The notes under the pieces are model-generated. The model searched no databases. It was not told the DNA's origin and worked only from the letters and a program-made list of their open reading frames with translations. A DNA stretch of 36,492 bases from Pseudomonadota bacterium (GTDB lineage: Bacteria > Pseudomonadota > Alphaproteobacteria > Micavibrionales > UBA2020), in NCBI GenBank assembly GCA_021805245.1, contig JAJZFS010000022.1:1-36492 (forward strand), given 5' to 3'. Within the stretch, counting starts at the first letter, position 1; each line of letters starts with the position of its first letter. The translations under genes were made by a program, and so were the position numbers. This document shows positions 7,573 to 24,705 of the stretch, piece after piece.

Positions 7573-8067
7573 ATGCATACCGCCCCGACCGATGGAAACA
7601 GTTTGACAAAACAACAACATAACATTCTTATTCTCAACGGCCCGAACCTGAATATGCTTGGCGTTCGCGAACCCGACGTGTATGGATTCAAGAACCTGAG
7701 CGCCATCGCGCTGGAGTGCGAGGAATACGCCAGCGAGCTGGGCTGCACCATCGACTTCCGCCAGACCAACATCGAGGGCGAGCTGGTGACGATTATTCAG
7801 GAGGCTGCCTCCCGCAACGGCGTTTCGGCGTGCGCGGGGGTCATTATAAACGGCGGAGCCTATGCGCATACGTCCATCGCGCTGGCCGACGCCTTGAGGA
7901 TACTGGAGGTACCGATTATAGAAGTGCATATCACCAACACGTACAAGCGCGAGCCGTACCGTCATCACTCCTATATCGCGGAAACGGCGCAGGGCGTCAT
8001 CTGCGGGTTCGGCGGCCACGGCTACCTGCTCGCGCTCGACGCGATGCGCGCGCTGTTAGAAGAATAA
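7573..8067 (+). CDS. aroQ: 3-dehydroquinate dehydratase, type II
   Basis: Dehydrates 3-dehydroquinate to 3-dehydroshikimate in the shikimate pathway; type II enzymes are dodecamers. The core begins [15 protein letters not shown], followed by REPDVYG (active-site Tyr/Arg loop), [26 protein letters not shown] with the catalytic His, and EVHITN. From the ATG at 7573 it has 164 residues, about 15–20 more than usual. A TTG at 7603 preceded by GATGGAAA gives 154 residues and a family-like N-terminus and may be the true start. First gene of an aroQ–accB–accC run. Confidence 0.95.
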
Positions 8068-8117
8068 CCTTGGAGAAAACAAAAAAAATGCCCACGAAAT
8101 CTGAGAGGAAATCGAAA

Positions 8118-8570
8118 ATGGCTCCCATGAAGATCGACCACGACGCCATCCGCAATCTGGCGACGCTGCTGACCGAGACCGACCTGACCGAAATCGAGAT
8201 CGCCGAGGGCGACAAGCGCATCCGTGTGACGCGCACCGTGACGGCGCAGGTCTTTTCCGCGCCCGCGAACATGCCGCAAACCGCGCCCGCCGCGAATGCC
8301 GCCGCCGCCGATGAGGGCATGGATCTCGAAAACCATCCGGGCGCCGTCAAATCGCCGATGGTCGGCACGGTTTACCTGCAGCCCGAGCCTTCCGCCCCCG
8401 CGTTCATCGCCAAGGGCCAGCCCGTGCAGGCGGGCGACACGCTGCTGATTATCGAGGCGATGAAGGTCATGAACCCGATCAAGGCCGACAGGGGCGGCAC
8501 GATCATGGAAATTCTCGTCGATGACAGCCAGCCGGTCGAATTCGGCCAGCCGCTGGTGATCATCGTTTAA
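8118..8570 (+). CDS. accB: Acetyl-CoA carboxylase biotin carboxyl carrier protein
   Basis: Carries the biotin that shuttles CO2 between biotin carboxylase and carboxyltransferase in the first step of fatty acid synthesis. 150 residues: an N-terminal helical part ([18 protein letters not shown]), an Ala/Pro-rich linker at about 45–65, and a biotinyl domain from about 76 ([10 protein letters not shown]) with E-A-M-K116-V-M-N, where K116 is biotinylated. The ATG at 8118 has AGAGGAA 7 nt upstream and matches family N-termini. An in-frame ATG at 8088 would add ten residues and also has a weaker TGGAGA upstream. accC follows after 15 nt. Confidence 0.97.
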
Positions 8571-8585
8571 AACCGGACGCATAGC

Positions 8586-9949
<1,364 letters not shown>

Positions 9950-12675: not shown

Positions 12676-13623
12676 TTGACGTCCGCGCCCGACACACCTG
12701 CAGCACAAAAGAAGCTCTTCTGTTTCGGATTCGGCTACACGGCGGGTTTTCTGGCCGGCCGGCTGATGGCCAGGGGCTGGCAGATCGCCGGCACGACGAC
12801 CTCCGCCAAAAAGCGCGATCTTCTCAGGAAAAGCGGCGTCGAGGCCATGCTGTTCGACCGCACCCATCCCATCGCCAACCCGGAAAGGGCCTTTGCGGAC
12901 GTGACGCACATGCTGTTCTCCGTGCCGCCGGATGCGGACGGCGACCCTGTGTTCAACATGCACGGCGCGGACATCGCGGCTTTGACCTCGCTGGAATGGG
13001 CGGGCTATCTTTCCACCACCGCCGTCTACGGCAATCAGGACGGCAACTGGGTGGATGAAACGACGCCGCCCGCGCCCGCCAGCAAACGCGGCAGCCAGCG
13101 CCTGAAAGCCGAAGAACAATGGCAGTCGCTGTATCTCAACGAAGGTTTGCCGCTGCATATCTTCCGCTGCGCCGGCATTTACGGGCCGGGCCGCAGCGCG
13201 CTCGACGTGGTGCGCGCGGGACAGGCGCGCTGCGTCGACAAGCCGGGGCATATGTTCAACCGCATTCATGTGGAGGATATCGCGCAAACGCTGCAGGCCT
13301 CCATCGCGCATCCCCGTCCCGGCGCGCTCTACAACCTCGCCGACGACGAGCCCTCGCCGAGCCACGCGGTGATCGGTTTTGCCTGCAACCTCATCGGCGC
13401 GGAAACGCCGCCGCTCGTGCCGTTCGAAAGCGCGGACATGGCGCCGATCGTGCGCAGCTTCTACAAGGACAACAAACGCGTGCGCAACGACATGATCAAG
13501 AACGAGCTCGGCGTGCAACTGCTCTATCCCGACTATCACAGCGGCCTCACGGCCTGCCTGGCCATCGAGCAGGAGACCTCGGACATGCTCAAACTTTCCG
13601 ACACGCCGCCCGAAGCGGAGTAG
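12676..13623 (+). CDS. NAD(P)-binding extended SDR (epimerase/dehydratase-like) protein
   Basis: 315 residues. Starts KLFCFGFGYTAGFLAGRL, a nucleotide-binding loop of the GxGYxA type found in atypical extended SDRs. YLSTTAVYGNQDGNWVDE supplies the Ser/Tyr region, RLKAEEQW takes the place of the usual YxxxK helix, and GIYGPGRSALDVV and FNRIHVEDIA follow. These resemble YeeZ-like sugar-epimerase relatives whose reaction is unknown. The only reasonable start is the TTG at 12676, with AAAGG 10 nt upstream; no ATG lies in frame before residue 30. No terminator seen before the AT-rich gap that follows. Confidence 0.85.
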   Translation: MTSAPDTPAAQKKLFCFGFGYTAGFLAGRLMARGWQIAGTTTSAKKRDLLRKSGVEAMLFDRTHPIANPERAFADVTHMLFSVPPDADGDPVFNMHGADIAALTSLEWAGYLSTTAVYGNQDGNWVDETTPPAPASKRGSQRLKAEEQWQSLYLNEGLPLHIFRCAGIYGPGRSALDVVRAGQARCVDKPGHMFNRIHVEDIAQTLQASIAHPRPGALYNLADDEPSPSHAVIGFACNLIGAETPPLVPFESADMAPIVRSFYKDNKRVRNDMIKNELGVQLLYPDYHSGLTACLAIEQETSDMLKLSDTPPEAE

Positions 13624-13700
13624 TTTTATATAGTATGGCGAAATAATCCTTTATTATTAACATATTATTGATATAAAGCGCACGCGTGACGGGGTAAAAA

Positions 13701-13714
13701 AAGAATCGATTCTT
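13701..13714. promoter_or_regulatory. Perfect 14-bp palindrome
   Basis: AAGAATCGATTCTT is fully self-complementary and lies 255 nt upstream of the ClpA-like start, beside CTTGAA. A candidate operator; no known binding factor is recognised. Confidence 0.35.
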
Positions 13715-13878
13715 GAAAAAAATAGGTTTTTCTAGAAATCCTGCGGACGCCCTGCCACACGCGCCCCCCATAAAAAAAACATAATATACTTTTGTTTTTC
13801 ATAATAATAATAATATTACATTTTTATATCTATATATGTAATTATATTTCCAAAAAACCATAATACATATAATTTTTC

Positions 13879-13907
13879 TTGATTAAAATAATCTTAATAG
13901 CTAATAC
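13879..13907 (+). promoter_or_regulatory. Candidate promoter of the ClpA-like gene
   Basis: TTGATT (13879–13884) and TAATAC (13902–13907) with a 17-nt spacer, giving a leader of about 55 nt. The -10 match is moderate. AGGAGA at 13957–13962, 6 nt before the ATG, is a strong ribosome-binding site. Confidence 0.4.
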
Positions 13908-13968
13908 TACGTAAACCGCAAGGACATAACTCTGATCCACCAAAAGACCTCTTATCAGGAGATATAAA

Positions 13969-16578
13969 ATGACAACAAACCCCGGCAACGAAGATTTCAC
14001 CGGCTTCCGCTTTCTGGTAGACGCCAAGACGAACAGACAATACGCTCTGGAATTCCAAGACGGCGCACCGACCCCGCCCTTGCACACCCATAACGGCGCG
14101 AAATTGACGCCGAACGAAACGATCGTCGCGTTCGACGACGCGCAGACCGTGACCACTTTCGGCGACCGCGCCACAATCACGACCGATGTGTACCAGATTA
14201 CCGACGAAAGCGACGCTACCGGCGCCCACTACGATATCCACATCGCCGCCGTGACCTACAAGGTTGTCAACGCCCCCGACGGCACGCTCGCTTTGGAACT
14301 CACCCCCGAATCCAAGCAGAACCTGATGGACGAAGGCTTCAACAGCTTCAAGGTGCCGACGCGCATCGAAGACGTCGGCACGCCCGTCGCGGGCGAGCCC
14401 GGCAAGTTCCACATTTCGCTGCCGCCGCAACACAAAAACGGCATCGCGGATGCCGCGCGCAAAGCACACAAGCAGCCCTCGACGCGTGAACTCGTCGAAG
14501 TCAGAAAACCCCGCCGCCCGCGCAAGGAATTCGACGCCGCCGCGCAGCGCAACTTCAAGATCAGCGACAGCCAGATCGAACAGGCCTTCGCCAAATACTG
14601 CCAGGACCTGACGGAACTGGCGCGCCAGGGCAAGCTCGACCCGATCGTCGGCCGCGATCAGGAAACCGATCAGGCCCTCAAAGTCCTGACCCGCCGCAAA
14701 CAGTCGAGCCTGTGCTTCACGGGCGAAGCCGGCGTCGGCAAAAGCGCCATGTTCTCGGGCATCGCCCAGCGAATCGTCGCCGAAGCCGACACGGGCAAGC
14801 TGCCGATCAGCCTGGAAGGCGCGCGCGTCATCCAGCTCGACCTGCAGTCCATGAACGCCGGCGCCCGCTACCGCGGCGACTTCGAAGAGCGCATCAAGCC
14901 GCTGATCGACGGTCTCGCGGAACGCGAAGGCACCTTCAAAGGCCAGAAGATCATCCTCGCCATCGACGAAATCCACTCGCAGCTGACGGCCGGCAAGGCC
15001 GAAGGCGGCTCCGACGCGGCGAACATGATGAAGCCGTTCCTCACCGCCAAGGGCGTGTCCGTCATGGGCACGACGACGGACAAGGAATACCGCAAGTTCA
15101 TCGAAAAAGATCCGGCCCTCTCGAGCCGCTTCGAAAAAATGCGCCTCGAACAACCCGATGAGGACACGACGCTGACCATTCTCAAGCGCCTGTGGCCGCT
15201 GACTGAAGAGCACAACGGCCTGACCGAAAAGCTCGCGGACGACGACTTCAAATACCTCATCACCATGACGAACCGCTACGCGCCGCAGGAAGCCCAGCCG
15301 CGCAAGGGTGAAAAGGCCATGAACATGGCCGCCACCTCGGCGGAATTCGAGGGCCGCACCGCCATCACGCGCAAAGACATCATCTCCGCCGTCTCGCAGA
15401 TGTCCGGCCTGTCGGTCGAATTCCTGTCGCAAAGCGACGCCCAGCACTTCGTCGAACTCAAGCAAAGACTGCCGCAGGAAGTCTTGGGTCAGCCCGACCT
15501 CAAGCACATCACCAGCGGCCTGGTCGGCGCGCGCGGCGGCCTCGCCAACCCGAAACAGCCCTGGGGCTGCTTCGTGCTGCAAGGCCCGACCGGTACCGGC
15601 AAGACGGAAACCGCCAAGGCGCTCGCCCGCTACCTGTTCGGCACGGAAGACGCGCTGATCACGGTCAACATGGCCGAGTACAGCGAGAAGCATTCCATCG
15701 CCCGTCTGATCGGCGCGCCTCCGGGCTACGTCGGCTTTGAAGACGCGGAGCCGGTGTTCGAAAAGGTCCGCCAGCGCCCCTACTCGATTCTCCTGCTGGA
15801 CGAAATCGAAAAGGCGCACCCGGACGTGTTCAACATCCTGCTGCCGATCCTCGAAGACGGCAAGACCAAGGACAACCACGAGAACATCATCATGTTCAAC
15901 AACGTCATCATCCTGATGACGACCAACGCCGGCGCGGCCGACGCCATGAATCTGATCGAAACAGGCGGCGCAACCGGCATGGGCTTTGATGATAACGTGC
16001 AGTCTCCGGCAGAGATGAAGCAGAAGCTCGAGAAGATCTACGAGAAGTCCCGCCAGAAGGCTAACGGCGGCCCGTTCGCGCCGGAAATGATCAACCGCAT
16101 CAACATGCTCGGCGGCTTCGTCACCTACATCCCGCTGGCGCAGGAAGTCGTTGCCAAGATCGCCAACAAGCAGATCAAGGACATCAGCAAGCGCCTCAGC
16201 AACGCCGACGGCCAGAACCTGCCGGGCGTGACGCTGTCGGTCACGGAAAAGGTGATGGATGAAATGTGCAAGCTGGGCTACAACCCCGCGATGGGCGCCC
16301 GCCCGATGCAGAAGGTCATCCGCGAGAAGATCATCAACCCGCTGACCGAATGGCTCATGATCAACCGCGAACAGGTCGAAAAGGCCGCGAAAGGCGGCGA
16401 CGTGAAACTGGTCATCAACTCGCTCGCGCTGGACGACATGGATAGCTACGTCGTTCCGCCGACGATCGAGAAGGCGACCCCGACCGCCAACGACAACGCC
16501 ACCACGGCGAAGATCACCGACACGCCGAAGCGCCGCCGCATAAAAAATGCGTCGCACGGCAAAGGCCCCTCGGCTTAA
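13969..16578 (+). CDS. ClpA-like double-AAA+ unfoldase with unfamiliar N-terminal region
   Basis: 869 residues. Residues 1 to about 190 resemble no Clp N-domain I know: they look strand-rich, with a basic stretch (RKPRRPRKEF) near the end. D1 follows: KLDPIVGRDQE, Walker A GEAGVGKS (252–259), pore loop AGARYRGDFEER, Walker B with D333-E334, and DPALSSRFEKM. D2: GPTGTGKT (539–546), pore loop GAPPGYVGFEDA, LLLDEIEKAHPDVFN with D611-E612, and Arg finger in MINRIN (R710). No coiled-coil M-domain lies between D1 and D2, so it is ClpA-like rather than a ClpB disaggregase. M671-G-F occupies the position of the ClpP-docking IGL/LGF loop. It probably unfolds proteins for ClpP; adaptor and substrates are unknown. 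A strong terminator follows. Confidence 0.88.
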   Translation: MTTNPGNEDFTGFRFLVDAKTNRQYALEFQDGAPTPPLHTHNGAKLTPNETIVAFDDAQTVTTFGDRATITTDVYQITDESDATGAHYDIHIAAVTYKVVNAPDGTLALELTPESKQNLMDEGFNSFKVPTRIEDVGTPVAGEPGKFHISLPPQHKNGIADAARKAHKQPSTRELVEVRKPRRPRKEFDAAAQRNFKISDSQIEQAFAKYCQDLTELARQGKLDPIVGRDQETDQALKVLTRRKQSSLCFTGEAGVGKSAMFSGIAQRIVAEADTGKLPISLEGARVIQLDLQSMNAGARYRGDFEERIKPLIDGLAEREGTFKGQKIILAIDEIHSQLTAGKAEGGSDAANMMKPFLTAKGVSVMGTTTDKEYRKFIEKDPALSSRFEKMRLEQPDEDTTLTILKRLWPLTEEHNGLTEKLADDDFKYLITMTNRYAPQEAQPRKGEKAMNMAATSAEFEGRTAITRKDIISAVSQMSGLSVEFLSQSDAQHFVELKQRLPQEVLGQPDLKHITSGLVGARGGLANPKQPWGCFVLQGPTGTGKTETAKALARYLFGTEDALITVNMAEYSEKHSIARLIGAPPGYVGFEDAEPVFEKVRQRPYSILLLDEIEKAHPDVFNILLPILEDGKTKDNHENIIMFNNVIILMTTNAGAADAMNLIETGGATGMGFDDNVQSPAEMKQKLEKIYEKSRQKANGGPFAPEMINRINMLGGFVTYIPLAQEVVAKIANKQIKDISKRLSNADGQNLPGVTLSVTEKVMDEMCKLGYNPAMGARPMQKVIREKIINPLTEWLMINREQVEKAAKGGDVKLVINSLALDDMDSYVVPPTIEKATPTANDNATTAKITDTPKRRRIKNASHGKGPSA

Positions 16579-16608
16579 ATCGCCGAGGGTTCACACCCGC
16601 TTTAAAAG

Positions 16609-16640
16609 AGACCCGGCTTTAAAAGGCCGGGTCTTTTTTT
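16609..16640. terminator. Strong rho-independent terminator, probably bidirectional
   Basis: GACCCGGC (16610–16617) and GCCGGGTC (16626–16633) form an 8-bp GC-rich stem with an 8-nt loop, followed by seven T on the plus strand. On the minus strand the hairpin is followed by TCTTTT, so it may also end the pilin transcript, whose stop codon lies in the T-tract. Confidence 0.9.
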
Positions 16641-20077: not shown

Positions 20078-20986
20078 TTAAAGGCGGCGTTGCAAAACGT
20101 AGTAGGCGAGGTCTTTCAAGAGATCGACGCGCCCCTCGTCGAAGGCGCGCAGGTGGCCGACCGCCTGCTCCACCAGCATCTCGGCGCGGGTGCGCGCCTG
20201 TTCGCGGCCCATGGCGGTGACGAAGGTGGCTTTTTTGCCGTCCTGATTGGCGGGCTTGCCCATCTCCGCGGCGTTGCCCTCGGCGTCGAGCAGGTCGTCG
20301 GTGACCTGAAAGGCGAGGCCGAGATCATGCGCGTAGTTCCTGAGCGCCTGACGGTGCGCGGGATTGGCTTTGCCCAAAATCGCCCCCGCCTCGCAGCAGA
20401 AGGCGATCAGCTTGCCGGTCTTGAGGCGTTGCAGGCGGCTGATGGTGCCGACGTCGAATTCCTGTTTCTCGCCGATCATGTCGAGCATCTGCCCGCCGAC
20501 CATGCCGTGCGGCCCGATGGCCGAAGCCAGCAGCGCCACCAGTTCGATGCGCACGCGCGGGTCTTCGTGCGTCTCGGCGTTGGCGATGATGTCGAAGGCC
20601 AGCGCCTGCAGCCCGTCGCCCGCGAGGATGGCCGTCGCCTCGCCGTAGGCCTTGTGCAGCGAAGGCTTGCCGCGGCGGGTGTCGGAATTGTCCATCGCCG
20701 GCAGGTCGTCGTGGACCAGGGAATAGCTGTGGATAAACTCGACCGCCGCCGCCACGCGCCGCGCGCGCGCCGCGTCCACGCCGAAGATTCTCGCCCCCTC
20801 CATCACCATGAACGGGCGCAGCCTTTTCCCGCCCGACAGCACCGCATAGCGCATGCCGTCAAACAACGGCGCCTCGGCCAGCTCCGTCCCCGGCAGCAGG
20901 CTGGCGATCGTTTTATTGACGCTGTCGCGGCAGGCCTCCATGGCCTGTTGCAGTTTCGGCGATGCTTCGCGTGGAGAGGGAGCCAT
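20078..20986 (-). CDS. ispA: Farnesyl diphosphate synthase (short-chain polyprenyl synthetase)
   Basis: Adds isopentenyl diphosphate to dimethylallyl and geranyl diphosphate. 302 residues, the usual size. GGKRLRPFMV; first Asp-rich motif D93-D-L-P-A-M-D99, with the two-residue insertion typical of bacterial FPP synthases and an aromatic Tyr88 five residues before it; GDGLQALAF; GGQMLDM; KTGKLI; second motif DDLLD. Upstream of dxs in the widespread ispA–dxs order, but the usual xseB partner lies 3.5 kb away beyond three plus-strand ankyrin-type genes. A possible minus-strand -10 TATAAA lies at 21042–21047; its -35 is unclear. Confidence 0.96.
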   Translation of the reverse strand: MAPSPREASPKLQQAMEACRDSVNKTIASLLPGTELAEAPLFDGMRYAVLSGGKRLRPFMVMEGARIFGVDAARARRVAAAVEFIHSYSLVHDDLPAMDNSDTRRGKPSLHKAYGEATAILAGDGLQALAFDIIANAETHEDPRVRIELVALLASAIGPHGMVGGQMLDMIGEKQEFDVGTISRLQRLKTGKLIAFCCEAGAILGKANPAHRQALRNYAHDLGLAFQVTDDLLDAEGNAAEMGKPANQDGKKATFVTAMGREQARTRAEMLVEQAVGHLRAFDEGRVDLLKDLAYYVLQRRL

Positions 20987-21103
20987 GGTGAAAAAACTCT
21001 TTCAGTGTAAATGGTTGGAACGGGTCAAATAGAGGTGATTCTTTATAGCCCAAAGCATGTGAAAAAGTCATCTTTTTCGGGAATTTAAATTATGAAAAAA
21101 TTA

Positions 21104-21132
21104 TTGACTTTGCGCAATATGTAAATGATAAT
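21104..21132 (+). promoter_or_regulatory. Strong sigma-70-like promoter for the ankyrin-type trio
   Basis: TTGACT (21104–21109), a 17-nt spacer and GATAAT (21127–21132): five of six matches in each box with optimal spacing, inside an AT-rich gap. It is 45 nt upstream of the first gene, whose GTG start has AAAGGAG (21162–21168). Confidence 0.65.
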
Positions 21133-21177: not shown

Positions 21178-22323
21178 GTGTTTGGATATAAAAGCAAAAG
21201 GCAGCGCCGTGCAGAACGCATACAAAACCTGCTGGCCGCCGCCCGCAACAACGACGTCGAAGGCGTGGAAAAATACTTTATGCACCGCCCCGTCGTCTTC
21301 GACGCCTGCCTCGAAGCCGCCAAGGCCGGCGCGGCGGCAGCCCTGGAGGCCCTGCTGCAAAAAAACAAGGGGTTCGACTTCTCCCCCAACGAACACCATA
21401 TCAGCGATAGCGGCGGCGCCTGCCTCCTGATCGAAAAGGCGCGCCAGTTGCCCGATGCGGACGCGGCGGCCGCCCTGATGGCGGTGCTGCGCCGCGCCAA
21501 CAAGACGACAGGTTACGGTCAGCAGCCCGCAACGAACTTCCTCGCGCCCAACATCTCTTTTGACGATCTGCAAAGTATTCTGGAAGAAGCGCCGCGCCAG
21601 TTCGACAACGCCCTGAAAAGCGTCGGGCTGCACGCCACCGACAAGCTCAAGTTCGTCCTCTCCTTCACGCCCAAGGACGGCAGCGGGCAGCAGGCGCTGG
21701 ACAGCGCGCTGGTCACCGTCGCCGAAAGAGGGGATACGGACAAGGCCGCGCTGCTGCTCAAACACGGCGCGGACGCGAACTATGCCGCCGCGCGCGCGCT
21801 GCTCGGCGCGGCGCAGCGGGGACAGGTGGAGATGGCCGCGCTGCTGGTTCCCCATGTCGATCTCGCGCTCTACGGCATGGATATCGCCGCCAAGGTCGAG
21901 CCCGCCGATCCGGAAATGGCGCAGCTGATCACGCAACTGACGGAGGCCGCGCCGGAAGAGGGCGCCGCCGCGCAAACGGCGCGCGAAGCAAGGACGGATG
22001 CGGCGGACGGTCAAGCCGCGCCGGCCGCGGCCGCGCAAAGCGACACGCTCACGGAAACGCGCGCCCTGCCCGACGGCGGCCCGCTGACCTCCGTCTTCTG
22101 TTTCAGCGCGCAGCAGCAGCATAACATCGTGCGCACGCCGGACGGCGGCGTCGCCATGACGACCGTCGCTTTCAAAAACATCGACAAGGGCGTCATCGCC
22201 GTCATGAAAGAGAAATTCGGCGCCCGCGCGGCCAGGGCCGGACAGCCGGAACAAGCCGCCCCCGCGGACGACCAACCGGCGAAAGGCGTGGCGGCGCGCC
22301 TCAAAGGCACCGGCCTCACCTGA
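21178..22323 (+). CDS. Ankyrin-repeat-like paralogue 1 with shared C-terminal module
   Basis: 381 residues, GTG start with AAAGGAG 9 nt upstream. Basic N-terminus (MFGYKSKRQRRAERIQ), then LLAAARNNDVEGVEKYF, the start of ankyrin-like helices. At about 165–225 lies a clear ankyrin pair (ALVTVAERGDTDKAALLLKH, then GADANYAAARALLGAAQRG). After an Ala/Glu-rich linker (about 255–295), a conserved module spans 297–347 (LTSVFCFSAQQQHNI, MTTVAFKNIDKGVI), and the chain ends GVAARLKGTGLT. I do not recognise the module. No signal peptide or membrane helix. It shares order and motifs with the two following genes; function unknown, perhaps protein–protein contact. Confidence 0.75.
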   Translation: MFGYKSKRQRRAERIQNLLAAARNNDVEGVEKYFMHRPVVFDACLEAAKAGAAAALEALLQKNKGFDFSPNEHHISDSGGACLLIEKARQLPDADAAAALMAVLRRANKTTGYGQQPATNFLAPNISFDDLQSILEEAPRQFDNALKSVGLHATDKLKFVLSFTPKDGSGQQALDSALVTVAERGDTDKAALLLKHGADANYAAARALLGAAQRGQVEMAALLVPHVDLALYGMDIAAKVEPADPEMAQLITQLTEAAPEEGAAAQTAREARTDAADGQAAPAAAAQSDTLTETRALPDGGPLTSVFCFSAQQQHNIVRTPDGGVAMTTVAFKNIDKGVIAVMKEKFGARAARAGQPEQAAPADDQPAKGVAARLKGTGLT

Positions 22324-22338
22324 CAAGGAAAATTCTCC

Positions 22339-23316
22339 ATGTTCAACAGAAAAGCAAAAAAATTTGAAGCGCTCCGCCAGGCCATCGCCGCGGACGACCC
22401 CGCGCTGGCCGACATCGGATATTTCGGCGGAGACAAATGTTACGAGGCCGCGCACACCGCCATCCGCAACAACGCCCCGAAGGTTCTCGCCGCGCTGGTC
22501 AAAACCAAAAGCCGGGGCTTTAGCTCCGCGTTCGCTTTTGCGGACACCCGGGAAGATTCAAAACGCAACGCCCGCCGGCTGCTCGCGACCATTTCCGCCG
22601 CCGCCGATCCTCTGCGCCTGTGGACCATCCTGCACGAGGCCAACGCGGCGGCGCAGAACGAGGGGGTGCGGCTGGCCGACAGGGATTTCCTGACGCGCGC
22701 CGCACCGGCCGATTTCATACAGCAGCAGCTGGAGCGCGACCCGCTTCTCTTCAAGAGCTGCGTGGAAAACATCGGTCTGGCGGAAACCGAAAAGCTGAAA
22801 TTCATCCTCACCCTGACGCCCAAAACCGGGGATGCGCAAATTGCCCTGAGCGGCGCGCTGATCAAGACCGCGGGCGCGGGCGACGCTGAAAAGACCCGGC
22901 TTCTTCTCGACCACGGCGCGGACGCGCATTACGCGGGAGGCCTGGCGCTGACGCGCGCGGTTCAAAACGGACACACGCCGGTGGCCGCGATGATCCGCGC
23001 GGCGGCCGCAAAGGCCGCGCCGCCGCAAGCCGCAACGCCTGCGGCCGCGGCCGCCGCGGCGCTGGTCGAAAATGAAGCCCTGCCCGGCGGCGGCACGCTG
23101 ACGACGGTCTTCAACTTCCGCACCCGGCAGCAGCATAACGTGCTGGCCACGCCGGACGGCACGAAGCTGATGACGACCGTCAGCTTCAAAGATATCGACA
23201 AGGACGTCATCGCCGCCGCGCAGAAAAGATATGAAGAACAGGGCCGGCAAGGCGCCGCAGACGGCCTGGCCGCGAAAAGCATCGTGAAAAAACTCAAAGG
23301 CGCAGGGCTGGCCTGA
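22339..23316 (+). CDS. Ankyrin-repeat-like paralogue 2 with shared C-terminal module
   Basis: 325 residues. Same layout as its neighbours: MFNRKAKKFEALRQAI, a divergent N-terminal helical region, ENIGLAETEKLKFILTLTPK, an ankyrin unit (GAGDAEKTRLLLDHGADAHY), an Ala-rich linker, the module at 248–298 (LTTVFNFRTRQQHNV, MTTVSFKDIDKDVI), and a tail ending SIVKKLKGAGLA. The shortest of the three, mainly through fewer residues after the ankyrin units. AAGGAAAA precedes the ATG. 15 nt separate it from paralogue 1, so co-transcription is likely. Base composition does not stand out from the neighbours, so there is no obvious sign of recent transfer. Function unknown. Confidence 0.74.
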   Translation: MFNRKAKKFEALRQAIAADDPALADIGYFGGDKCYEAAHTAIRNNAPKVLAALVKTKSRGFSSAFAFADTREDSKRNARRLLATISAAADPLRLWTILHEANAAAQNEGVRLADRDFLTRAAPADFIQQQLERDPLLFKSCVENIGLAETEKLKFILTLTPKTGDAQIALSGALIKTAGAGDAEKTRLLLDHGADAHYAGGLALTRAVQNGHTPVAAMIRAAAAKAAPPQAATPAAAAAAALVENEALPGGGTLTTVFNFRTRQQHNVLATPDGTKLMTTVSFKDIDKDVIAAAQKRYEEQGRQGAADGLAAKSIVKKLKGAGLA

Positions 23317-23335
23317 CCCAAAAGGAGATTGCATT

Positions 23336-24460
23336 ATGTTCGGAAGAAAGAAAAAACTGCTCGAAGCCGCGCGCAACAACGACGCCGCGGGCGTGGACAC
23401 ATACTTCAGGCGGGGCAGCAGCTGCTATGAAGCCTGCCTCGAGGCCGTCGCGCACAACGCACCGGACGCACTGGAGAAGCTGCTGACAAAAAACAACGGC
23501 TATTACTTCTTCGATTCCTGGAGCCAAAATCAGGAGCTCGGCAAAGCGCTGTGGAAGGCGATGGAAGATGCGGGATCGCCGGACAGCCTTTTTCTGGCCG
23601 CCTATGCCTCGAACGGAGACAACATGTGGAGCTGCCTCGAGGAAAAGAACTTCATGACGAAAGGCGCGCCGCTCGACGTCATCCGCGCCGTTCTTGAAAA
23701 AGACCCTTCCCTGTTCGAAACCGGCGTCAACAATATCGGCCTGCTTGACACCGCCAAGCTGAAATTCGTCCTCACTTTCACGCCGAAAGACGGCAGCGCG
23801 CAGCAGGTCTTGAACGCGGCGCTGATCTCCGCCGCCGAAAAAGGCGATGCCGGTAAAGTTGCGGTCCTGCTGCAATACAACGCCGACCCCGACTATGCCG
23901 GCGGACGGGCGCTGGCCCGCGCGGCGGAAAAGGGCTACGACCGCACGGTCGGCTTGCTGCTGCCGCTGGTCAATCTCGCGGATCACGGCAAAGACATTAT
24001 CACGCAGCTGGAGCTCAAGGGCGCGAACCCGCGGATCATCGCCACGCTTGACAGCGCCACCCGTGACGCGCTGAAGAAAAACCCGTGCCGGACGGCGGCG
24101 GCGGAGACGCCCGCCGGGACGGACAGCGCGGAAAATTACGCGCGTCTCGACGGCCATACGCTCGCCGAAATACAAATCCTGCCCAATAACGCGACGCTGA
24201 CCACCCTCTTCAACTTCGCCACGGGACAGCAGCAAATCATTCTCACCGATGCGCAAAACAACGCGTCCGCGCCGGTCGTCGTGCCCTTCAGGGACATCGA
24301 TGAAAAACTTCTGGCCGCCTTGCGGGAAAAATTCGACGCGCTGGCGGTTTCAGCGGCGGCGGCCCCGCAGCAAGAGGCCGCCGCGAACGAAAGCCCGAAC
24401 GGCAAAAACAAGCTGGCGTCTTCCGGCGTCGCCGCGCGGCTTAAAAAAGCGGGGCTTTAA
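23336..24460 (+). CDS. Ankyrin-repeat-like paralogue 3 with diverged C-terminal module
   Basis: 374 residues. MFGRKKKLLEAARNNDAAGV at the start is very like paralogue 1. The middle has NNIGLLDTAKLKFVLTFTPK and an ankyrin pair (AEKGDAGKVAVLLQYNADPD, then GRALARAAEKGYDRTVGLLL). The module at 282–333 (LTTLFNFATGQQQII, VVVPFRDIDEKLL) has lost the TPDG and MTTV parts kept by the other two. The tail SSGVAARLKKAGL is conserved. AAAAGGAG is 8–10 nt upstream of the ATG. Its TAA overlaps the convergent xseB stop by 4 nt, so the trio fills the space between ispA and xseB completely. Function unknown. Confidence 0.74.
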   Translation: MFGRKKKLLEAARNNDAAGVDTYFRRGSSCYEACLEAVAHNAPDALEKLLTKNNGYYFFDSWSQNQELGKALWKAMEDAGSPDSLFLAAYASNGDNMWSCLEEKNFMTKGAPLDVIRAVLEKDPSLFETGVNNIGLLDTAKLKFVLTFTPKDGSAQQVLNAALISAAEKGDAGKVAVLLQYNADPDYAGGRALARAAEKGYDRTVGLLLPLVNLADHGKDIITQLELKGANPRIIATLDSATRDALKKNPCRTAAAETPAGTDSAENYARLDGHTLAEIQILPNNATLTTLFNFATGQQQIILTDAQNNASAPVVVPFRDIDEKLLAALREKFDALAVSAAAAPQQEAAANESPNGKNKLASSGVAARLKKAGL

Positions 24461-24705
24461 TCGGAAACGGGGAATGCCTCGGTTTTGGCGCTGCCGTCGG
24501 CGGCCAGCGTGATCTTTTCGATGCGCGTTTGCGCCTCTTTCAGCTTGTCCTCGCAGAGCTTCTTCAGGGCCATGCCGCGCTCGTAAGAGGTGATGGAGGC
24601 GTTGAGATCCGCGCCGCCCGATTCCAGCTGGCGGACGATTTTTTCCAGCTCGGATAAAGCCGCTTCAAACGTCAGGCTTTCATGTTCTTTTTTTACGGCG
24701 GTCAT
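24457..24705 (-). CDS. xseB: Exodeoxyribonuclease VII small subunit
   Basis: Small subunit of the ssDNA exonuclease that yields acid-soluble oligonucleotides; partner XseA is not in the window. 82 residues: LTFEAALSELEKIVRQLESG, then ADLNASITSYERGMAL, KKLCEDKLKEAQTRIEKI, the standard XseB helices, and an acidic tail. Start at 24705 is fixed by AGGAGAAGG 6 nt upstream; the frame stays open further upstream, but that part reads into uppP and is spurious. Last gene of a lipoprotein–gmhA–uppP–xseB run. In many proteobacteria xseB is followed by ispA and dxs. Confidence 0.95.
   Translation of the reverse strand: MTAVKKEHESLTFEAALSELEKIVRQLESGGADLNASITSYERGMALKKLCEDKLKEAQTRIEKITLAADGSAKTEAFPVSD

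What the first reader, a model, noticed from the sequence alone, without database searches (positions are those of the whole stretch)
21178..24460. Three tandem ankyrin-type paralogues separate xseB from ispA–dxs
Directly visible: three plus-strand genes with the same layout (basic MF-x-x-K start, divergent helical part, ENIGL..KLKF.L..TPK, ankyrin unit, linker, conserved module, RLKxxGL tail) fill the space between ispA (-) and xseB (-). The xseB–ispA–dxs order is widespread in proteobacteria, so the trio probably entered or arose inside a housekeeping operon and expanded by duplication. The last stop overlaps the xseB stop by 4 nt, so the fit is exact, and no mobile-element remnant is seen. 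A self-contained, strongly promoted three-gene family of unknown function is the best candidate here for an undescribed system.
Basis: partly seen in the sequence, partly recalled or inferred. Interest (0 to 1): 0.7.

Follow-up and report, generated by a model that had tools for sequence, protein, structure and literature searches.

The report
Fast-evolving ankyrin gene trio, undescribed domain
Three neighbouring genes in an uncultured relative of predatory bacteria are one small share of a large, fast-changing family of target-binding ankyrin proteins that all end in a small domain absent from the databases searched here; what they bind is unknown.

Summary
In detail: three plus-strand paralogues (37-38% identical to the first) fill the gap between ispA and xseB, follow one promoter, and end with a 4-nt stop overlap with xseB. 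xseB and ispA lie 40-150 nt apart in nine related genomes of the order (Micavibrionales/UBA2020-like); five genomes of the genus carry 1-3 such genes there, one carries none. So the array is a lineage-specific, copy-variable insertion, but it lies just outside ispA's own conserved promoter-like element, at a transcription-unit boundary.

The trio is not a self-contained three-gene system. Each protein is an ankyrin-type solenoid (AlphaFold2 pLDDT 88) followed by an undescribed ~75-residue C-terminal module (beta-meander plus helix, here 'FNF'). FNF occurs in 17 of 18 genomes of the family (2-39 copies each, often in tandem arrays), in 27 of 142 of the order, and in none of about 780 other sampled genomes of its class and phylum. 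No signal peptide, catalytic motif or mobile-element link was found. Positional orthologues have dN/dS 0.39-0.63 against 0.07-0.15 for flanking genes. Best reading: cytosolic, rapidly diversifying target-binding proteins, perhaps an immunity/self-protection array (0.35); rivals are adaptors and effectors.

The parts
21178..22323 (+). ankyrin-FNF paralogue 1 (381 aa, GTG start)
   Evidence: positional orthologues in G002 and G004
22339..23316 (+). ankyrin-FNF paralogue 2 (325 aa)
   Evidence: orthologue is the second gene in G004
23336..24460 (+). ankyrin-FNF paralogue 3 (374 aa); AF2 model: helical solenoid residues 1-248, beta-meander plus helix 268-342
22015..22248 (+). FNF C-terminal module of paralogue 1
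   Evidence: profile match E 4.4e-21
23035..23259 (+). FNF C-terminal module of paralogue 2
   Evidence: profile match E 3.0e-23
24125..24364 (+). FNF C-terminal module of paralogue 3; predicted alone with core pLDDT 91-97
   Evidence: profile match E 1.6e-22; structure
21104..21132 (+). array promoter TTGACT-17-GATAAT
   Evidence: counterpart at the same relative place in G002, G003, G004, G007
21042..21071 (-). ispA promoter-like element ATGACT-18-TATAAA, overlapping the palindrome GAAAAAG-TCAT-CTTTTTC (21061-21078); conserved in occupied and empty sites
   Evidence: read from the alignment and sequences
20078..20986 (-). ispA (farnesyl diphosphate synthase), left flank
   Evidence: NF045485
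24457..24705 (-). xseB (exodeoxyribonuclease VII small subunit), right flank; its stop overlaps that of paralogue 3

Best explanation
The trio is one array of a large, lineage-restricted family of cytosolic target-binding proteins. Shown or strongly predicted: each protein is a degenerate ankyrin solenoid followed by a shared, apparently non-catalytic FNF module; genes sit in same-strand tandem arrays, here behind one promoter; copy number varies between congeners; coding sequence diverges far faster than that of the neighbours. Inferred: the solenoid of each paralogue binds a different protein target and FNF is the common structural, dimerising or partner-binding part. Most likely mechanism (inferred): binding neutralises proteins of hostile or self-harming origin, so the array works like a homogeneous polyimmunity or self-protection locus in which duplication and divergence follow changing toxins or enzymes. 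The general claim (rapidly diversifying cytosolic binders) is about 0.8 likely; the immunity or self-protection role about 0.35.
For: Architecture and fold. Of 69 full-length FNF proteins scanned, 43 have detectable ankyrins and none shows a consistent enzymatic Pfam domain; the module is C-terminal in all, tail 10-38 residues; only hydrophobic, core-type residues plus one Asn are near-invariant. Tandem arrays: 17 of 21 and 10 of 14 listed modules in two near-complete genomes lie within 2.5 kb of another, against about 0.5 and 0.3 expected. Variable copy number at one site. Fast evolution: dN/dS 0.39-0.63 at the trio site against 0.073-0.151 for ispA, uppP and xseB; 0.20-0.53 in the second array against 0.06-0.14 for its flanks. 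No hydrophobic N-terminus in 68 of 69. Published polyimmunity loci share tandem same-strand distant paralogues, short gaps, no intervening toxin and variable gene number, and ankyrin immunity proteins are listed there (PMC3482391). Bd3460 is an ankyrin self-protection protein of a bacterial predator (PMC4686830).
Against: No toxin partner or recognised immunity superfamily was identified; Pfam gave no immunity-family match. Published polyimmunity loci usually number one per organism (PMC3482391), whereas this family has up to 39 modules at many loci per genome. dN/dS stays below 1 over whole genes, so relaxed constraint could explain part of the speed; in the first gene only two overlapping windows exceed 1, where dS happens to be low. 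The genomes are mostly MAGs without expression or phenotype data.
Confidence: 0.35

Rival explanations
1. Intracellular adaptor family: the solenoid recognises different client proteins and the FNF module docks them on one common cellular machine (by analogy with eukaryotic ankyrin-SOCS-box or ankyrin-F-box substrate receptors).
For: Constant C-terminal module on variable helical parts, 26 of 69 without detectable ankyrins; across the close set the module (mean column identity 49%) is more conserved than the whole protein (34%); both arrays of this genome end in a short basic tail (YDKLRDLGK / RLKKAGL); the structure comparison lists ASB7 and FEM1B among ankyrin matches, though all ankyrins score alike.
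Against: In positional orthologues of paralogue 1 the module is no more conserved than the solenoid (51% vs 55%), unexpected for a docking surface on a fixed partner; no SOCS, F-box or PRANC Pfam match among 69 members; no partner known.
Confidence: 0.25
2. Neutral or weakly constrained duplications of an ordinary ankyrin scaffold with a mild housekeeping role.
For: dN/dS raised but below 1; copy loss or absence tolerated (G006 empty site); the ankyrin repeats are degenerate.
Against: Frames stay open in nearly all copies listed, a strong promoter is kept at the site in five genomes, and the module persists in 17 of 18 genomes of the family.
Confidence: 0.18
3. Exported effectors delivered into prey or a eukaryotic host, like ankyrin effectors of intracellular bacteria.
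For: Ankyrin effectors are known from host-associated bacteria (text of PMC4686830); the order includes predatory Micavibrio; short basic C-terminal tails.
Against: VirB4 is absent from this genome and most relatives (2 of 16 positive), the T6SS sheath protein VipB is absent in all 16; no signal peptides by hydropathy; Micavibrio aeruginosavorus is reported to lack type III and IV systems (PMC3189940). Dot/Icm, T3SS and T1SS export were not tested here.
Confidence: 0.12
4. Anti-phage defence or phage-protein sensing by variable ankyrin receptors.
For: Fast evolution and copy-number variation; weak ankyrin-region PADLOC similarity to candidate PDC-M72A.
Against: The PADLOC match covers only the ankyrin stretch; no nuclease, NADase or membrane effector domain; no phage or viral-contig relatives.
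Confidence: 0.1

Closest known systems
Ankyrin-repeat proteins (Pfam Ank_2 PF12796 and relatives)
   Same: Predicted fold of residues 1-248 aligns to solved ankyrin domains, Z 12.0 over 223 residues; family profile hits them at 1.5e-34.
   Different: Repeats degenerate, all three proteins below Pfam's cut-off; carries a C-terminal module not in Pfam.
Homogeneous polyimmunity loci, including Imm-ank (Zhang et al. 2012, PMC3482391)
   Same: Tandem, same-strand, closely spaced, distantly related paralogues, no intervening toxin, gene number differs between close relatives.
   Different: Many loci per genome instead of usually one; no recognised immunity superfamily; no toxin found; found only in one order so far.
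Bd3460, ankyrin self-protection protein of Bdellovibrio (PMC4686830)
   Same: Ankyrin solenoid in a predatory-bacterium setting.
   Different: Bd3460 is periplasmic with a signal peptide and next to its target endopeptidase; the trio has neither.
Ankyrin-SOCS box / ankyrin-PRANC proteins
   Same: Variable ankyrin receptor plus constant C-terminal module (analogy only).
   Different: FNF is a predicted beta-meander plus helix; no PRANC, F-box or SOCS match in Pfam.

Membership tests
Ankyrin-repeat proteins | Stacked helix-turn-helix ankyrin repeats | tested here: met
   AF2 pLDDT mostly above 90 over residues 1-248; VIA Z 12.0, 223 residues, with ankyrins filling the rows
Ankyrin-repeat proteins | Score above Pfam's curated cut-off | tested here: not met
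   24.9, 22.9, 23.4 bits against 27.3; three FNF genes of the second array of this genome pass clearly, so kinship is not in doubt
Homogeneous polyimmunity locus | Tandem same-strand paralogues with short gaps and no toxin gene between | tested here: met
Homogeneous polyimmunity locus | Gene number differs between close relatives | tested here: met
   0-3 genes at the same site
Homogeneous polyimmunity locus | Members belong to a recognised immunity superfamily | tested here: not met
   Pfam, NCBIfam and PADLOC give none
Homogeneous polyimmunity locus | Members neutralise toxins | not testable with these tools
   needs binding and toxicity assays
Bd3460-type self-protection protein | Signal peptide and periplasmic location | tested here: not met
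   no hydrophobic N-terminus; hydropathy only, no dedicated predictor
Bd3460-type self-protection protein | Gene next to a peptidoglycan endopeptidase target | tested here: not met
   neighbours are ispA, dxs, xseB, uppP
Type IV or VI secreted ankyrin effector | VirB4 or VipB machinery in the genome | tested here: not met
   no VirB4 match and no VipB match in G000, a 97% complete draft; Dot/Icm not tested
Ankyrin-PRANC / F-box proteins | C-terminal PRANC/F-box-like domain | tested here: not met
   no such Pfam match in 69 members at E<=0.01
Polo-box-like fold (for the FNF module) | Polo-box beta-sheet plus helix fold | tested here: inconclusive
   VIA Z 6.2 at most, below the level that means more than a common arrangement
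Known anti-phage system | Match to a PADLOC system protein over its full domain set | tested here: not met
   only ankyrin-stretch similarity to the PDC-M72A and Ankyrin models

The most novel reading that the evidence does not exclude
FNF is a common recruitment module: the ankyrin-FNF proteins are a bacterial counterpart of eukaryotic ankyrin substrate receptors, in which up to tens of rapidly changing solenoids per genome deliver different foreign proteins to one shared machine for inactivation or degradation, giving families of the Micavibrionales their own expandable recognition repertoire.
Probability: 0.12. Interest if true: 0.8.

Novelty: new variant of a known kind. Interest (0 to 1): 0.47.

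Why it matters
A lineage-specific domain without a consistent match in Pfam, NCBIfam or PHROGs defines a multigene family of up to 39 members per genome in a family of the Micavibrionales, an order that includes obligate predators of bacteria; such fast-evolving families often mark an ongoing molecular conflict. The trio site, with empty, one-, two- and three-gene states in congeners behind a promoter at the same place, is a clean place to measure birth, loss and selection. If the proteins prove to neutralise toxins or prey enzymes, they would be a new type of ankyrin immunity repertoire.

Tried and rejected
The full alignment had no stretch conserved enough for a collection scan; a single-protein scan of genome contigs found nothing; a closer subset found 7 loci, which match relatives already held under handles. 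The first IspA tree was built from wrongly oriented frames and discarded; redone. Automatic gene calling failed on the G001 contigs, so ORFs were read directly. Fold searches with the FNF module gave only weak matches (5hal, CdiI 6cp9, polo-box; best Z 6.2); no solved structure stood out, which does not prove a new fold. PDB sequence search with the module gave chance-level hits. A defence-system reading was ranked last for lack of effector domains. A mobile-element origin was dropped: no phage, plasmid or viral-contig relatives, though those scans were of limited sensitivity.

Full report
Observation. Three plus-strand genes lie at 21178-22323, 22339-23316 and 23336-24460 between ispA (20078-20986, -) and xseB (24457-24705, -). 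The second and third proteins are 37% and 38% identical to the first. Pfam sees one ankyrin block in each, just below its cut-off; a profile of the family retrieves solved ankyrin structures at 1.5e-34. AlphaFold2 with 18 sequences gives a confident model of the third protein (mean pLDDT 87.6): a helical solenoid from residue 1 to about 248, a disordered linker, a beta-meander plus helix at 268-342, and a short terminal helix of low confidence. The solenoid aligns to ankyrin structures with Z 12.0 over 223 residues. The 4-nt TTAA stop overlap with xseB is real and also present in G002.

The site in relatives. In the order, the xseB and ispA matches are only about 40-150 nt apart in G006, G008, G009, G018, G019, G020, G021, G022 and G023. 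In the same genus, one gene lies there in G002 and G003, two in G004, three in G007 and here. In G001 the two flanking genes are on different contigs with other neighbours (ispA next to recA). G005 gave no ispA or xseB match. So the genes are an addition to a formerly short spacer, with variable copy number. The site genes of G000, G002, G004 and G007, plus a second pair in G007, form one clade; the G003 site gene branches with members from other sites, so one old insertion or two separate insertions remain possible. The IspA tree puts G000, G002, G004 and G007 together, with G003, G006 and G001 unresolved.

Regulation. The spacer next to ispA holds a conserved minus-strand promoter-like element and palindrome, present in occupied and empty sites alike, and the array promoter (TTGACT-17-GATAAT here) lies just beyond it, with counterparts at the same relative place in the other four occupied genomes. 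It is the only sigma-70-like site the consensus scan found in the region (0.6 expected by chance, so its support is the conservation, not the scan). The array therefore sits at a boundary between the xseB side and the ispA promoter rather than inside a transcription unit. Co-transcription of the trio is inferred from the 15- and 19-nt gaps.

A shared C-terminal module. An alignment of the C-terminal stretch and then a 62-row alignment define a module of about 75 residues with the signature L-T-x-x-F-N-F, then some 20-30 residues, then F-x-D, then L..A..KL..LGG. Pfam, NCBIfam and PHROGs have no consistent match. It is found in 17 of 18 genomes of the family, 2-39 copies each at E<=0.001, in 27 of 142 genomes of the order at E<=1e-4, and in none of the other 384 genomes of the class sample and 397 of the phylum sample at E<=1e-5 (the two samples overlap and include a few of the order). 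It sits 10-38 residues before the C-terminus in all 70 unique frames examined. Of 69 proteins scanned, 43 have detectable ankyrins and none shows a consistent enzymatic domain. Predicted alone, its core has pLDDT 91-97: four antiparallel strands, a short strand and a helix. Structure searches give only weak matches. The only near-invariant residues are F, N, F and a later F, which argues for a binding or structural module, not an enzyme (inference).

Arrays. This genome has a second array on contig C111 (about 12927-16617, minus strand): three ankyrin-FNF genes beginning MFGKK or MRMFGKK and one ankyrin-only gene, with an orthologous array in G005. Its proteins end in YDKLRDLGK-like tails, resembling the RLKKAGL tails of the trio. 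In two near-complete genomes most listed modules lie within 2.5 kb of another, far above chance (which uses only the modules listed).

Evolution. Positional orthologues at the trio site are 41-53% identical while IspA is 94-95%; dN/dS is 0.62 and 0.39 (first gene) and 0.63 (second gene), against 0.073-0.077 for ispA, 0.128 for uppP and 0.151 for xseB. The C111 array shows 0.20-0.53 against 0.06-0.14 for its flanks. Synonymous distances are not saturated in most pairs (highest 1.26). Values below 1 show that the proteins are still constrained; two overlapping windows above 1 in the first gene coincide with low dS and are not proof of positive selection.

Mechanism. No hydrophobic N-terminus is evident in 68 of 69 members. 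VirB4 is absent here and in 14 of 16 genomes, VipB in all 16, and Micavibrio aeruginosavorus is reported to lack type III and IV systems (PMC3189940), so export is unlikely but not excluded. The remaining picture is of cytosolic, rapidly diversifying binders in tandem arrays. That pattern matches published homogeneous polyimmunity loci in gene order, spacing and variable number, and differs in having many loci per genome and no recognised immunity family (PMC3482391). I rank immunity or self-protection first (0.35), adaptor function second (0.25), weakly constrained expansion third (0.18), export fourth (0.12) and anti-phage sensing fifth (0.10). The target step is not shown for any of them.

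Taxonomy. Contigs of the same length as those of some relatives are titled Micavibrio sp. UBA2020, Alphaproteobacteria, Rhodospirillales and Rhodospirillaceae MAGs, and a published survey lists UBA2020 under Micavibrionales (PMC10994693). The assignment to Micavibrionales/UBA2020 is an inference from these; predation by this organism itself is not shown.

Limits. Several genomes are incomplete MAGs; the dN/dS estimates use a simple counting method; family counts depend on the profile threshold; no expression or interaction data exist here.

Noticed in passing
window 21061-21078: 18-bp palindrome GAAAAAG-TCAT-CTTTTTC overlapping the -35 side of the ispA promoter-like element, conserved or nearly so across the genus and family even in empty sites; a possible operator controlling ispA-dxs.
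   Followed up: partly
L103 4928-8618 (G000:C111 about 12927-16617): Second ankyrin array of this genome, next to an ABC transporter operon, with ankyrins above Pfam cut-off; one of its three FNF genes (7854-8618) evolves much faster (dN/dS 0.53) than its sisters.
   Followed up: partly
L104 5822-7024: A DUF6782 putative metallopeptidase gene lies directly upstream of an FNF-gene array in G008; an unscanned gene of similar length precedes the G011 array (L108 4352-5524).
   Followed up: no
L045 / G006:C239:2881-3786: ispA of G006 carries an in-frame TAA in an otherwise 87% identical frame; assembly error or pseudogene not resolved.
   Followed up: no
L117 590-1918 (G001): A long pentapeptide-repeat-like protein lies near recA and ispA in G001, the one congener without any FNF module.
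   Followed up: no
L037 (G003:C30:2000-13208): Run of about nine plus-strand ankyrin-only open frames (178-273 codons), another tandem ankyrin expansion that lacks a detected FNF module.
   Followed up: no
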